DNA from: Coemansia sp. RSA 487
Taxonomy: Eukaryota; Kickxellomycota; Kickxellomycetes; Kickxellales; Kickxellaceae
Direction: 5' to 3'
NCBI GenBank assembly: GCA_027577595.1
Contig: JANBRJ010000095.1
Coordinates: 1-62,945, forward strand
Length of the DNA stretch: 62,945 nt
In this document: positions 24,974 through 42,517 of the stretch, one piece after another
Numbering within the stretch: position 1 is the stretch's first letter
Layout: each line of letters opens with the position of its first letter
Translations under genes and position numbers: made by a program
Notes under the pieces: model-generated
The model's input: the letters and a program-made list of their open reading frames with translations, nothing else
Databases searched by the model: none
Told to the model about the DNA's origin: nothing

Positions 24974-27900
24974 TCACCAAGCAAGCTGCTGCTGGGATTC
25001 GGCATCGCCACAAGAAGCAGGCTTGCCACACGCACCACCAGCGCTCTTCAGAACAGATTCTGGGTCGGCTGCAATCGCAGCACGGAACAGAAGGTTGCCA
25101 TACTTTTTGTACATCTCGGTAACGCCACCACCCAGAATAAGACGCTCCTCCATGGTCGAGAGGTTAAAGCTAAACGAGTAGCCGTTGCAGTAGATCTTGC
25201 GGTTGGGCAGGTCAATCGAGACCTCGGCGCCTTCTTGGGCCAGCTCATAGAACTTGTCGTCCTTGAGAACAATGCCAAGAAGCGCCATATTGGGCTGGTT
25301 GCGCGAGTAGATAAAAGCATATGACTTGGCAATAACGGCCTTTACGAATGCGCCCTTAAGCGCGCGCGGTGCTTCTTCGCGCGACGAGCCTGAGCCGAAC
25401 CCAATTCCGGCAACAACAATGTCAAAGCCCTGCTGGACCTTTTCACGGAACTCGGGACGGAAGTACTCGAAAGCGTGTGTGCCAAGATCCTCGTCGGAAA
25501 CACCGGGCATGAATTGTGCGGGAATGATTGCGTCGGTATCGATGTTGTCGTCGAAACGCTGGACTTTGCCGGTTATCATGCTACTCTTATCCACAGGCTC
25601 ACTCGAGTCCTCGTTGGAGGCGCTGATGCCATCGGTGTTACGCGAGGCAATGGTCTCACTGCGGGTCTCCTCAAGGGTGGGGTTAGGCTCTGAAACGACA
25701 ATCTCCTCAGCCCTGTCCATCCAGACATCGAGCATCTTTTGGTAACGAACACGATCAATCGAGTCAAGAAGCTCGCGTGGGTTTGTAGCCTTCATGTTGA
25801 AAGACGATGCCGCAACAGTGGCAGCCGACGCCAGGTTAGCAATCGAGCCTGGGCCCATGCGGTTCTTAAAATTGCGGTTCTGGGAGCTAAGCCAAACCTC
25901 GCCCTCGCCAGCAACATCGGCGGCGATGCCAAGGCAGTACGAGCATCCTGGCGCACCAACTGTAAATCCTGCGCGCTGATAAACATCGACCAAGCCAAGA
26001 CGGCGAAGCTTGGCCAAGATAGGAACAGAGCCTGGTGTGACGCGTCTGTTGCCGTGCGATGCTGGCACAAGCCCCTTCTTGAGACCAGCCTCAAGAACGA
26101 GGCCAGCAAGGATCAGGTCTTCTTCAGCCGTTGTGCATGCCCCAATGAAGCAGCCATCGAGATCCATCTTGACCTCGTCGACATGGACTACATTGTCAGG
26201 GCTCGGGTGTAGCGCAACAAGCGAATCGATCTGGGACAGGTCAATGACATGCGACTCGGCATACTGCGCATCAGGGTCAGCGCGGAAGAACAACGAGTGC
26301 TTCTTGTACTCGGGGCTCTTGCGCTTGGAAATATACGCTGCAGTGATCTCATCAGCCTCAAAGACACCAGCAATACCGCCAAACTCGGTGGCCATGTTTG
26401 CACAAGCAAAGCGAGCATCGCAGCTCATGTACTTGAGACCAGGTCCCGTATATTCGACAGCACGCTCAAACGCCACAGTGTTGCGCTTCAACTGGCGCAG
26501 AACATCAAGGATAATGTCCTTACCGCCAATTCCAAATGGCGGCGCATTGACAAAGCGGATCTCAACAGTCTCGGGAACCTGGAGCCAGGTCTCGCCAGTG
26601 ACAAGCGGCATGACGACGTCAGCGGCGCCCATACCAATAGAAAGCGCACCAACAGCACCACCAGAGCAAGTGTGCGAGTCAGCGCCAATGACAAGTTGAC
26701 CAGGCTGCGCACGCTCGCGGTAGAACTCCGTGTGAAGAATGGTATAGTTGGGACGGTAAAAATCGACCAGGTGTGCCTCCTCGGCAAACAGCTCCGAGGT
26801 GTTCACAAGCTCTTTGGGCTTCTTTTGGTTGATAATGCGAGGGTCGACAGTGTGGTCGACAGCAAGCCAGAAGCGGTCGTTGCGATTGACACCCGGGCGA
26901 CCCATTGCGTTGTAGGTCTTGTCCATGCCCTTCCAGGTAAGTTCAGAGGCAATAGTCCAGTCAACGCCTACACAGACCATGTCGCCAGGCTTTACATCGC
27001 CAGGAGCAGCCAGGCCAATCGCATGATGGGCAATGATCTTTTCACAGAGAGTCATGCCACGACGACCAGTGGAGCGCGCCAGGAGAAGGGGAGCAGGTGC
27101 CGCACGGTCCTCGACGTTGAGGCCCTCGGCGTAGGATGTTACAGCACGCACAACGGCATCACCGACCTCACTAGTGGTGGCTGTGCCGTCAAGGTCTTTT
27201 GTGCGAATATTCCATCCATTGAGCTCGTCGCTGTCAAGCACCCGACGCACAGCAAGCTCGATTATGTTGGCCTCCCGCTCCATGTTGAGTGAGTAGCGAA
27301 GCATCATTGCTGCGCTGAGGATGGTGCCGATGGGGTTGGCAATTCCCTGGCCAGCAATATCGGGGGCTGAGCCGTGAATCGGCTCGTAGAGGCCACGGCT
27401 AGGCTTGGCAGACGATGGAACGCTATTTAACGAGGCCGACGGAAGAAGGCCAAGCGAACCAGGAATGACGGATGCCTCGTCCGAGAGGATGTCGCCAAAC
27501 ATGTTTTCAGTGAGAACAATTCCGTTGAGCGCACGTGGGTTCTTGACCATTAGCATCGACGCAGAGTCGACAAGGTGGTGCTCAAGCTTGACCTTGGGGA
27601 ACTCGCGAGAGATTATGTCAGTCACCACACGGCGCCAAAGCCTGGATGTGGCGAGGACATTGGCCTTGTCTATGGAATGGATCGTCATTGGTGGCCGGGC
27701 AGTGGAGGCAAGGACGCCAGCAAGACGTGCAATACGCTCGACCTCGGGTACAGAGTACTCCATTGTGTCAAAGGCCTTGCCCTCGGCATTCTCTTCCTCG
27801 CGCTTTCCAAAGTAAAGCCCGCCAACGAGTTCGCGCAACACAACAAACTCCGCATCGCGCACAAGATCCTCCTTCAGCGGGGAGCAGCTGGTCAGGGTGC

Positions 27901-28279
27901 TGGCCGGGAAGCTCATGGGCCGAACATTGGCAAACAGGTCAAGGGTTTTCCGTAGATCAAGCAGACCCTGCTCGGGGCGAGGGCCAAGTCCCTTGGAGGC
28001 ATCCTGTGGATCGACTGGGCGTGGCCATGCAGGCCCACCAACAGCACCAAGAAGAATGGCGTCTGCCTTCTCACACGCAACGCGAGTCTCGTCGGGGAAC
28101 GGCTTTCCAGCCGCGTCGATGGCGCAGCCACCGAACTTGTGCTCCTCAAACTCGATGCTAACACCGCTCACGCGCGAGCGGATAGCAATGATCGCGTTAA
28201 GGACCTTCACAGCTTCGGCAGTGACCTCGGGACCGACACCATCGCCGGGAAGAACGACAACCTTGAACGCCTTTGACAT
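24974..28279 (-). CDS. Bifunctional fusion: 3-isopropylmalate dehydrogenase + aconitase-type isopropylmalate isomerase
   Basis: One uninterrupted frame of 1101 residues joins two enzymes that act in sequence in leucine-type chain elongation. Residues 1 to about 390 are an isopropylmalate dehydrogenase (Leu2/LeuB): [30 protein letters not shown] and [20 protein letters not shown]. From about 405 an aconitase large domain (LeuC-like) carries probable [4Fe-4S] ligands Cys715 in IGACTT and Cys779/Cys782 in GCSYC, plus [13 protein letters not shown]. After a Ser/Thr/Asp linker, residues 901-1080 form the swivel domain (LeuD-like; [26 protein letters not shown]). Compared with canonical fungal Leu1, the cluster motif (GSCTNGR) reads GACTTAEE and the substrate loop after IIPA (YLRT or similar) reads QFMPG, so substrate specificity is uncertain. 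No evident mitochondrial presequence. Yeast Leu1 and Leu2 are separate proteins. Confidence 0.93.
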
Positions 28280-41872: not shown

Positions 41873-42517
41873 ATGCCTGACAAAAGGGAAGGTGACACAT
41901 TAGCCCTGTTCGTTGGTCTAAGCAAAGGCATAGATATTTCGTCTGACACAAGCAGTGCGGGTAGCAACGATATGTCCAAAGCAGATAAAAACAGCAAGCC
42001 ATGTCGTGTGTGCGACTCGTTCAAAAGCTGGAGATTACATGAAGCCAAGTCTCACGCCAAAGTTAGTAGTGAGTCAGCTAAAATAAAAGCGTCTGCGGCA
42101 GGAGCTGGGTCGTTGGCGGCGACAGAAGCGGCATCGACAAGCACGCTTGTCGAAAGCGAGTGTCCTCCAGACTCGCAGGTGCTTGGAAGAGCAACATGGA
42201 CGTTTCTGCACACAATGGCTGCGTACTATCCTGAAAGGGCTGATACCAAGCAACAGGGCATTATGAAGTCATTACTGACAAGTTTTTCACACTTTTATCC
42301 GTGCGGCCGGTGTGCATCTCATCTTCGGGAAGAGATGGTAAAGCATCCACCCCCGGTAGATACACGCAAAAATCTCTCGCTGTGGATGTGTCAGACGCAC
42401 AACAAGGTGAACGTTATGCTTGGAAAGGACGAGTTTGACTGCTCAAAGCTAGATGAGAGATGGCGCGACGGCCCAAGTGACGGTAGATGTTCCTGGGCAC
42501 AAGATATTGAATATTGA
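41873..42517 (+). CDS. ERV1: FAD-linked sulfhydryl oxidase Erv1/ALR
   Basis: A 214-residue intermembrane-space sulfhydryl oxidase that reoxidises Mia40 and passes electrons to cytochrome c. The shuttle disulfide is visible as KPCRVCDSFKSW at about residue 43. The Erv/ALR domain (about 100-205) has GRATWTFLHTMAAYYPE, the active-site YPCGRCASHLREEM, FAD-binding WMCQTHNKVNVMLGK and the structural Cys pair (FDC...GRC). All catalytic cysteines are present. Length is close to yeast Erv1 (189). The linker between shuttle and core is Ala/Ser-rich. ATG at 41873. Confidence 0.96.
   Translation: MPDKREGDTLALFVGLSKGIDISSDTSSAGSNDMSKADKNSKPCRVCDSFKSWRLHEAKSHAKVSSESAKIKASAAGAGSLAATEAASTSTLVESECPPDSQVLGRATWTFLHTMAAYYPERADTKQQGIMKSLLTSFSHFYPCGRCASHLREEMVKHPPPVDTRKNLSLWMCQTHNKVNVMLGKDEFDCSKLDERWRDGPSDGRCSWAQDIEY

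What the first reader, a model, noticed from the sequence alone, without database searches (positions are those of the whole stretch)
24974..28279. Single 1101-residue polypeptide fusing isopropylmalate dehydrogenase to a full aconitase-type isomerase
Seen directly: one stop-free frame with complete dehydrogenase motifs, then a large aconitase domain with three probable cluster cysteines, then a swivel domain. The order is the reverse of the metabolic order (isomerase acts before dehydrogenase). Known: yeast Leu1 and Leu2 are separate proteins, and IPM synthase, isomerase and dehydrogenase catalyse successive steps. Inference: physical coupling could channel the oxidisable 3-isopropylmalate-type intermediate and fixes a 1:1 ratio.
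Basis: partly seen in the sequence, partly recalled or inferred. Interest (0 to 1): 0.85.

Follow-up and report, generated by a model that had tools for sequence, protein, structure and literature searches.

The report
Fused two-step leucine-making enzyme in fungi
In this fungus two consecutive leucine-making enzymes, which yeast makes as separate proteins, are one protein; many early-branching fungi and some protists share it, and the stand-alone LEU2-type genes of several other fungi look like a broken-off half of it.

Summary
One unbroken frame on the MINUS strand (24974-28279) encodes 1101 residues: isopropylmalate dehydrogenase (IPMDH), then a single-chain, archaeal-type isopropylmalate isomerase (IPMI), with the checked catalytic residues intact. 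The host is a Coemansia-like fungus. Searches of its assembly found no other IPMDH or IPMI over cut-off, but a synthase, a homoaconitase and two aconitases. It is very probably the working bifunctional leucine enzyme.

It is not unique: the fusion occurs across early-diverging fungi, Neolecta and some protists, and a rarer form adds the synthase. Nine library searches gave no listing that describes it.

(2) The isomerase half is not the yeast Leu1 type. (3) Stand-alone fungal LEU2 genes in the tree nest among fusion-derived sequences, as if severed from an ancestral fusion; budding-yeast LEU2 was not in the tree. Channelling is neither shown nor excluded.

The parts
24974..28279 (-). whole coding frame, 1101 aa plus stop, IPMDH-IPMI fusion
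27152..28264 (-). 3-isopropylmalate dehydrogenase half, residues 6-376; R110, R120, R149, Y156, K205, D238, D263, D267 invariant in 20 of 20 aligned fusions; NAD loop [12 protein letters not shown] present in the window protein
   Evidence: (TIGR00169 451.9 bits, cut-off 353.2)
27056..27151 (-). junction and linker between the halves, residues 377-408; 393-400 with pLDDT under 50
25775..27055 (-). isomerase large (aconitase-type) domain, residues 409-835
   Evidence: (PRK00402, IPMI_arch family)
26135..26137 (-). C715, first [4Fe-4S] ligand (FIGACT)
25943..25945 (-). C779, second [4Fe-4S] ligand (PGCSYC)
25934..25936 (-). C782, third [4Fe-4S] ligand
25613..25774 (-). linker between large and swivel domains, residues 836-889; 871-899 with pLDDT under 50
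25070..25612 (-). swivel (LeuD-like) domain, residues 890-1070, with SSR loop 965-967
   Evidence: (LEUD_arch 120.9 bits, cut-off 108.95)
24977..25039 (-). C-terminal tail with pLDDT under 50, residues 1081-1101, ending Leu-Ala-Trp: predicted cytosolic iron-sulfur targeting tripeptide
   Evidence: paper passages

Best explanation
The gene encodes a cytosolic bifunctional leucine-biosynthesis enzyme. The C-terminal half (LeuC-like plus LeuD-like, one [4Fe-4S] cluster) isomerises 2-isopropylmalate to 3-isopropylmalate; the N-terminal half oxidises and decarboxylates that with NAD+ to 2-ketoisocaproate. The chain ends in a free Trp on a probably disordered tail of about 20 residues, predicted to recruit the cytosolic iron-sulfur targeting complex that loads the cluster; that need for a free C-terminus on the isomerase is the likely reason the domain order is opposite to the pathway order. 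The fusion is old: found through early-diverging fungi and in some protists, while the stand-alone LEU2 genes sampled from Basidiomycota, Saitoella, Mucoromycotina and chytrids appear to descend from its N-terminal half. Shown here: the frame, domains, residues, tail conservation, no other IPMDH/IPMI over cut-off in the assembly as held, tree nesting. Inferred: both activities, substrate identity, CIA dependence, cytosolic location, reason for the order, direction (fission rather than repeated fusion).
For: IPMDH half passes the leuB equivalog cut-off; the catalytic residues checked and the three cysteines are invariant in 20 of 20 fusions. Own genome: leuB over cut-off only here; no leuC or leuD over cut-off; IPMS over cut-off on contig C30; homoaconitase on C24 and mitochondrial-type aconitases on C42 and C20, all over their cut-offs, so by elimination the isomerase half does the IPMI step. 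96 of 99 family members of 990 aa or more (the window's own included) end in W against a W frequency of 0.86%; the genome's other three aconitase-family proteins do not; 0 of 20 bacterial single-chain relatives used in the tree do, one of them (L066) cut by a contig end. For clients that bear it the tripeptide is reported necessary and sufficient for binding the targeting complex and directing cluster delivery; in yeast Leu1 loss of the last Trp cost about 60% of activity (abstract and passages of PMC10623007). Ala at the penultimate place changes affinity modestly when Trp is last (passages of the preprint PMC13082141). Trees and tests.
Against: No activity, transcript or localisation data. 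The isomerase half passes the cut-off of no large-subunit model shown (25 of 42 families shown), so its substrate rests on elimination and on its fusion partner. LAW fits the published consensus [LIM]-[DES]-[WF] at two of three positions. A related group of fusions at about 49% identity has lost the NAD loop of the dehydrogenase half (28 of 28 rows), so such a fusion need not stay bifunctional. The assembly has 184 contigs and no completeness value and was searched exon by exon, so absence of a second gene is not proof.
Confidence: 0.85

Rival explanations
1. The isomerase half acts mainly on another substrate (homocitrate, citrate or a specialised 2-alkylmalate), and the fusion serves a pathway other than leucine.
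For: The half scores close to homoaconitase and aconitase models as well as IPMI; some bacterial single-chain relatives lie near homocitrate/isopropylmalate-synthase-like genes.
Against: The genome has its own homoaconitase and two aconitases over cut-off and no other IPMI candidate was found; the partner is a leuB over cut-off; in the rarer triple fusions the third partner is an IPMS/homocitrate-synthase-type domain.
Confidence: 0.1
2. Only one half is active in this species and the other is a structural remnant, as seems to have happened in the ascomycete-type group of fusions.
For: 28 of 28 rows of that divergent group lack the NAD loop; 27 of 28 keep IGACT and 28 of 28 keep GCSYC.
Against: In the window protein every checked catalytic residue of both halves and the NAD loop are intact, and no second gene that could supply either step was found.
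Confidence: 0.05
3. The nested stand-alone LEU2 genes reflect repeated independent fusions of a vertically inherited LEU2 to a vertically inherited isomerase, not fission of one ancestral fusion.
For: The tree counts changes but does not give their direction; protist and Blastocladiomycota fusions lack the longer linker, so junctions are not all demonstrably the same; Neoconidiobolus linkers match weakly (z 2.7; 4 and 6 of 300 shuffles as good); Mortierella alpina is reported with separate isomerase and dehydrogenase genes (passages).
Against: The order is the same in the fusions examined. Linkers of Neolecta and Jimgerdemannia, each compared with the other 11 of 12 chosen linkers, were matched by 0 of 300 shuffles in 20 of 22 comparisons (z 3.3-9.9), and z was above 6 for Calcarisporiella, Rhizophagus, Paraglomus, Mortierella and Tieghemiomyces. 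Some stand-alone Mucoromycotina proteins end just where the linker begins (LNASEGH in P0299, LN in P0352, P0328, P0335, P0338).
Confidence: 0.25
4. Assembly or annotation artefact joining two genes.
For: None found.
Against: Single frame without stops; same continuous protein in many other assemblies.
Confidence: 0.01

Closest known systems
Yeast Leu2 / bacterial LeuB, 3-isopropylmalate dehydrogenase
   Same: Same family; equivalog TIGR00169 over cut-off; same active-site residues
   Different: Here it is the N-terminal half of a 1101-residue chain
Yeast Leu1, single-chain isopropylmalate isomerase
   Same: By recall: single-chain large plus swivel domains, [4Fe-4S] cluster, C-terminal Trp targeting signal
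   Different: The large domain scores 87 bits in its best piece with the classical LeuC model (cut-off 560.25) and is nearer to archaeal/HacA-like families; it carries IPMDH at its N-terminus
Archaeal IPMI/homoaconitase (M. jannaschii 4kp1, 4kp2, 3vba, 2pkp)
   Same: Nearest solved structures by sequence of the isomerase half; 4kp1 and 4kp2 also by fold
   Different: Solved as separate large and small subunits; bacterial and archaeal orthologues lack the targeting tripeptide (passages)
Bacterial single-chain LeuCD-like proteins (Calditrichota, Myxococcota, KSB1, Chloroflexota and others)
   Same: Same single-chain architecture, best-segment identity 53% (Calditrichota L032) and 54% (unnamed bacterium L031); in L060 and L073 a LeuB-type gene lies immediately upstream, the same order
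   Different: No LeuB in the same frame in the 67 loci surveyed, no terminal Trp in 20 of 20 used, and the L060/L073 dehydrogenases are only 34% identical to the window's
Other fused biosynthesis enzymes, such as eukaryotic FolB-FolK-FolP (abstract start of PMC4224340) and fungal AROM (recalled)
   Same: Consecutive pathway enzymes on one chain; for folate, fission patterns are reported
   Different: Different pathway; this fusion was not found described in the library searched

Membership tests
3-isopropylmalate dehydrogenase (LeuB) | score over the curated equivalog cut-off | tested here: met
   451.9 bits, cut-off 353.2
3-isopropylmalate dehydrogenase (LeuB) | substrate arginines, Tyr/Lys pair, metal aspartates, NAD loop | tested here: met
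   residue roles recalled from T. thermophilus IPMDH
3-isopropylmalate dehydrogenase (LeuB) | homodimer | not testable with these tools
   only a monomer model
Classical LeuC / yeast Leu1 large domain (TIGR00170) | score over cut-off | tested here: not met
   87 bits in best piece, cut-off 560.25; 137.6 bits
Archaeal/HacA-like IPMI large subunit family | score over cut-off | tested here: not met
   PRK00402 299.7 (cut-off 385), IPMI_arch 274.9 (cut-off 410.15); clear homologue, below the cut-offs
LeuD-type small subunit/swivel domain | LEUD_arch over cut-off, SSR loop | tested here: met
   120.9 bits, cut-off 108.95; S965 S966 R967. The classical leuD model TIGR00171 is not passed (72.4, cut-off 116.25)
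[4Fe-4S] aconitase superfamily | three cluster cysteines | tested here: met
   C715, C779, C782 invariant in 20 of 20
CIA clients with C-terminal targeting tripeptide | [LIM]-[DES]-[WF] at the very C-terminus | tested here: inconclusive
   LAW: two of three positions; terminal W in 96 of 99 family members; penultimate Ala tolerated with Trp (passages)
Isopropylmalate isomerase by function | converts 2- to 3-isopropylmalate | not testable with these tools
   inferred by elimination

The most novel reading that the evidence does not exclude
The IPMDH-IPMI fusion is the ancestral leucine enzyme of fungi, and probably of an older eukaryotic ancestor. The textbook stand-alone LEU2 gene is its severed N-terminal half, freed independently in several lineages, while the isomerase half was replaced by the yeast-type Leu1. 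A sister lineage went the other way and put the whole committed pathway, synthase-dehydrogenase-isomerase, on one chain. (Tested here only with Basidiomycota, Saitoella, Mucoromycotina, chytrid, Basidiobolus and Mortierellales LEU2; budding-yeast and Pezizomycotina LEU2 and any Leu1 were not in the trees.)
Probability: 0.55. Interest if true: 0.7.

Novelty: new variant of a known kind. Interest (0 to 1): 0.58.

Why it matters
It would change the picture of a model pathway: separate LEU2 and LEU1, classic laboratory markers, would be a remnant and a replacement of a single fused enzyme. It gives a testable reason for domain order (a free C-terminal Trp for iron-sulfur delivery), offers a natural system for testing channelling between an iron-sulfur isomerase and its dehydrogenase, and supplies a possible shared character for deep fungal phylogeny. 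It also shows how names such as 'hypothetical protein' or 'putative aconitate hydratase' hide the leucine pathway in early-diverging fungi.

Tried and rejected
Classical LEU1 or a second LEU2 elsewhere in the genome: searched with leuC, leuD and leuB models, none over cut-off apart from this gene; exon-by-exon search, so an intron-rich gene would score in pieces. A bacterial fusion as ancestor: 67 bacterial loci from one scan, none with LeuB and isomerase in one frame in my ORF survey; the scan used only 2 peptide patterns, both in the isomerase half, so this is not exhaustive. Viral contigs: no relative. Mitochondrial targeting: the chain starts [14 protein letters not shown] with no N-terminal extension (by eye only). 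Channelling from the model: not decidable. Rows dropped before the careful LeuB tree: 4 ascomycete fusions, P0098, P0101, P0074, the outgroup and 8 distant bacterial rows (16 of 61). P0281, first sorted as stand-alone, is a truncated fusion (its end shows linker and isomerase start); it and the other Mortierellales were left out of the second tests. Several proteins sorted as stand-alone isomerases are probably cut fusion gene models too, since P0111, P0116 and P0145 begin inside the end of a dehydrogenase half (P0116 and P0145 were in the tree, P0111 was not), so the label counts are not used. In one search the two outgroup rows sit on very long branches (7.9 and 10), so its root is weak. The test that Dikarya stand-alone LEU2 rows form one clade without Neolecta is only borderline (p 0.046). 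Clades tested were chosen after seeing the quick tree.

Full report
OBSERVATION. The frame lies on the minus strand, 28279 down to 24974, ATG to TGA, 1101 residues without a stop; the plus strand of the stretch is interrupted. Pfam places Iso_dh at 6-376, Aconitase with best stretch 440-704, and Aconitase_C at 890-1006. The first half passes the leuB equivalog cut-off (451.9 against 353.2 bits). The second half is nearest to PRK00402, PRK07229 and IPMI_arch, all below their cut-offs, and further from classical LeuC (137.6 bits, cut-off 560.25) (25 of 42 families shown). The C-terminal piece alone passes LEUD_arch (120.9 against 108.95) but not classical leuD (72.4 against 116.25).

HOST. The window is a whole contig (C95) of a 17.8 Mb, 184-contig assembly. 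The closest listed protein is 94% identical, from Coemansia sp. Benny D160-2. Neighbouring genes look ordinary for a fungus: by Pfam an SGTA-dimer/TPR protein, a PPR protein, a KA1-domain kinase, Erv1/Alr and an SMC protein.

WHAT ELSE THE GENOME HAS. leuB over cut-off: only this gene. leuC and leuD over cut-off: none. IPMS: one over cut-off with the bacterial-type model, contig C30; PMC2904702 reports a non-fungal-type IPMS in the zygomycete Phycomyces (passages read). Homoaconitase on C24 and two mitochondrial-type aconitases on C42 and C20, all over cut-off; a homocitrate synthase over cut-off and, about 1.3 kb away, a homoisocitrate-dehydrogenase-like gene (below cut-offs) on C15. So, as far as this assembly goes, leucine-specific steps two and three can only be supplied by the fusion.

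ACTIVE SITES. In an alignment of 20 fusions from fungi and protists, R110, R120, R149, Y156, K205, D238, D263 and D267 of the dehydrogenase half are invariant; so are C715, C779, C782, D475-H476, D534-S535-H536, R802, R807 and S965-S966-R967 of the isomerase half. Roles are recalled from T. thermophilus IPMDH and mitochondrial aconitase; alignments to solved chains agree where shown. The AlphaFold2 model from those 20 rows has mean pLDDT 80.7 and pTM 0.61; stretches under 50 include 393-400 (linker), 871-899 (between large and swivel domains) and 1081-1101 (tail). Among the 50 Foldseek rows shown, IPMDH structures reach a target-normalised TM-score of 0.92 and archaeal homoaconitase/IPMI large subunits 0.91. 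The relative placement of the halves is unresolved, so channelling is untested.

THE TAIL. The protein ends Leu-Ala-Trp. Of 121 proteins (the window's own and the 120 listed of 417 hits), 99 are 990 residues or longer; 96 of these end in W, against a W frequency of 0.86% in the same set. The three exceptions are P0073, P0101 and P0106; 22 shorter ones were not counted. The genome's other three aconitase-family proteins end in RK, SA and QQ. None of the 20 bacterial single-chain relatives used (of 67 loci found) ends in W, one being cut by its contig end. A C-terminal [LIM]-[DES]-[WF] tripeptide is the signal by which many cytosolic iron-sulfur proteins are recognised; fungal Leu1 has it while bacterial, archaeal, mitochondrial and plastid orthologues lack it, and loss of the last Trp cost yeast Leu1 about 60% of its activity, so the signal is not the only determinant (abstract and passages of PMC10623007). 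With Trp last, Ala in the penultimate place changes affinity only modestly (passages of the preprint PMC13082141). Inference: the isomerase half is a cytosolic CIA client and is therefore best placed at the C-terminus, which would explain why the order is opposite to the pathway. The triple fusions fit: in the four scanned, IPMS-type domains come first, IPMDH second and the isomerase last, and 7 of 7 listed end in W, though not all with a consensus tripeptide (ESW, TQW).

DISTRIBUTION. One search lists near-full-length fusions from Kickxellomycotina, Dimargaritales, Entomophthoromycotina, Glomeromycota, Mortierellomycota, Endogonales, Calcarisporiella, Syncephalis, chytrids, Neocallimastigomycota, Blastocladiomycota and the ascomycete Neolecta (species names from the listing; group names recalled except Coemansia, Jimgerdemannia and Neolecta), and EukProt entries whose labels I read as Physarum (Phypoly) and, from memory only, as an ichthyosporean (Nk52); other protist rows are unnamed. 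A divergent group of 28 rows at about 46-51% identity, whose named members are ascomycetes (Fusarium, Clonostachys, Verticillium, Pestalotiopsis and others), lacks the dehydrogenase NAD loop in 28 of 28 while keeping IGACT in 27 and GCSYC in 28. Proteins listed as stand-alone single-chain isomerases of this family also occur in oomycetes, Aspergillus, some yeasts and Mucoromycotina (120 of 1572 hits listed); some are cut gene models.

HISTORY OF THE ISOMERASE HALF. In a quick tree the nearest bacterial rows are one Calditrichota sequence and one from an unnamed bacterium (branch support 88), then Myxococcota, Chloroflexota, Planctomycetota and others; the root of that tree is weak. In 9 of 11 such bacterial genomes searched there is no classical LeuC over cut-off, which suggests, but in incomplete MAGs does not prove, that the single-chain protein is their IPMI. 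In L060 and L073 a dehydrogenase nearest to the PRK03437 LeuB model (over cut-off in L060, below in L073) lies immediately upstream.

HISTORY OF THE DEHYDROGENASE HALF. In a careful tree of 45 rows, stand-alone LEU2 and fusion halves are interleaved: Neolecta (fusion) with Saitoella (stand-alone) 99/94; Jimgerdemannia (fusion) with Umbelopsis, Radiomyces and Spinellus (stand-alone) 100/98; chytrid stand-alone and fusion rows together 96/99. Holding all stand-alone rows together is rejected (p 6e-9 without Mortierellales), as are holding all fusions together (p 2e-49 without Mortierellales) and holding Dikarya plus Mucoromycotina stand-alone rows together (p 0.0006); keeping Neolecta out of the Dikarya rows is only borderline rejected (p 0.046). 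These groups were chosen after a first tree. The tree has no budding-yeast or Pezizomycotina LEU2. A tree does not give direction. Fission rather than repeated fusion is favoured by identical order, by linker similarity across Neolecta, Glomeromycota, Mortierella, Calcarisporiella and Endogonales (0 of 300 shuffles as good in 20 of 22 comparisons among 12 chosen linkers), and by a few stand-alone Mucoromycotina proteins that end at the beginning of the linker. Against it: Neoconidiobolus linkers score weakly (z 2.7; 4 and 6 of 300 shuffles), and protist and Blastocladiomycota fusions have almost no linker to compare. Linker ends were set by eye.

KNOWN OR NOT. Ten library searches were made, nine on the fusion or pathway and one on the tail signal. 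Listings (titles and abstract starts) were capped at 20, so for I saw 20 of 37, 20 of 45 and 20 of 21. No listing describes this fusion. Term look-ups and passages in PMC8880518, PMC2904702, PMC3901274 and PMC5106029 show no mention of it; PMC8880518 reports separate LeuA2 and LeuB1/2 for Mortierella alpina. Subscription papers, including a survey of fungal gene fusions that I recall (Leonard and Richards 2012), were not seen, so 'not in print' is not claimed beyond these searches.

VERDICT. A real, conserved, bifunctional-looking leucine enzyme; widespread, so the window's copy is not special. The tail signal and the implied origin of stand-alone LEU2 are the parts a specialist would find surprising.

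Noticed in passing
P0100, P0102, P0104, P0107-P0110 (one search hits from eukprot, ena, lgn): Triple fusions IPMS-IPMDH-IPMI on one chain of 1340-1819 aa; in the four scanned, HMGL-like and HCS_D2 domains but no LeuA regulatory-domain hit.
   Followed up: partly
P0107, about residues 330-580: Intein-like insertion inside the IPMS part of a triple fusion: starts with Cys, ends His-Asn before Cys; Pfam Intein_splicing 23.6 bits, below its cut-off of 35.8.
   Followed up: partly
P0069, P0080-P0089, P0091-P0096, P0099, P0103, P0106, P0112-P0114, P0117-P0121: These 28 ascomycete-type fusions have lost the HGSAPDIAG cofactor loop of the dehydrogenase half, while IGACT is kept in 27 and GCSYC in 28: perhaps isomerase-only or repurposed.
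   Followed up: partly
G000:C15:13231-16645: Homocitrate synthase and a homoisocitrate-dehydrogenase-like gene lie about 1.3 kb apart in the host genome (lysine pathway).
   Followed up: no
window 41873-42517 +: Erv1/ALR family gene, which by recall has been linked to cytosolic iron-sulfur protein maturation, lies about 14 kb from the fusion; probably coincidence.
   Followed up: no
L042, L044, L046, L049, L050, L063, L065, L073, L080, L087, L092, L095: Bacterial single-chain isomerase genes with homocitrate/isopropylmalate-synthase-like genes nearby (24-31% identical to the synthase part used); the three scanned pass no equivalog cut-off.
   Followed up: partly
P0111, P0116, P0145, P0281: Public gene models of this family are sometimes cut near the junction, which creates false stand-alone halves.
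   Followed up: partly
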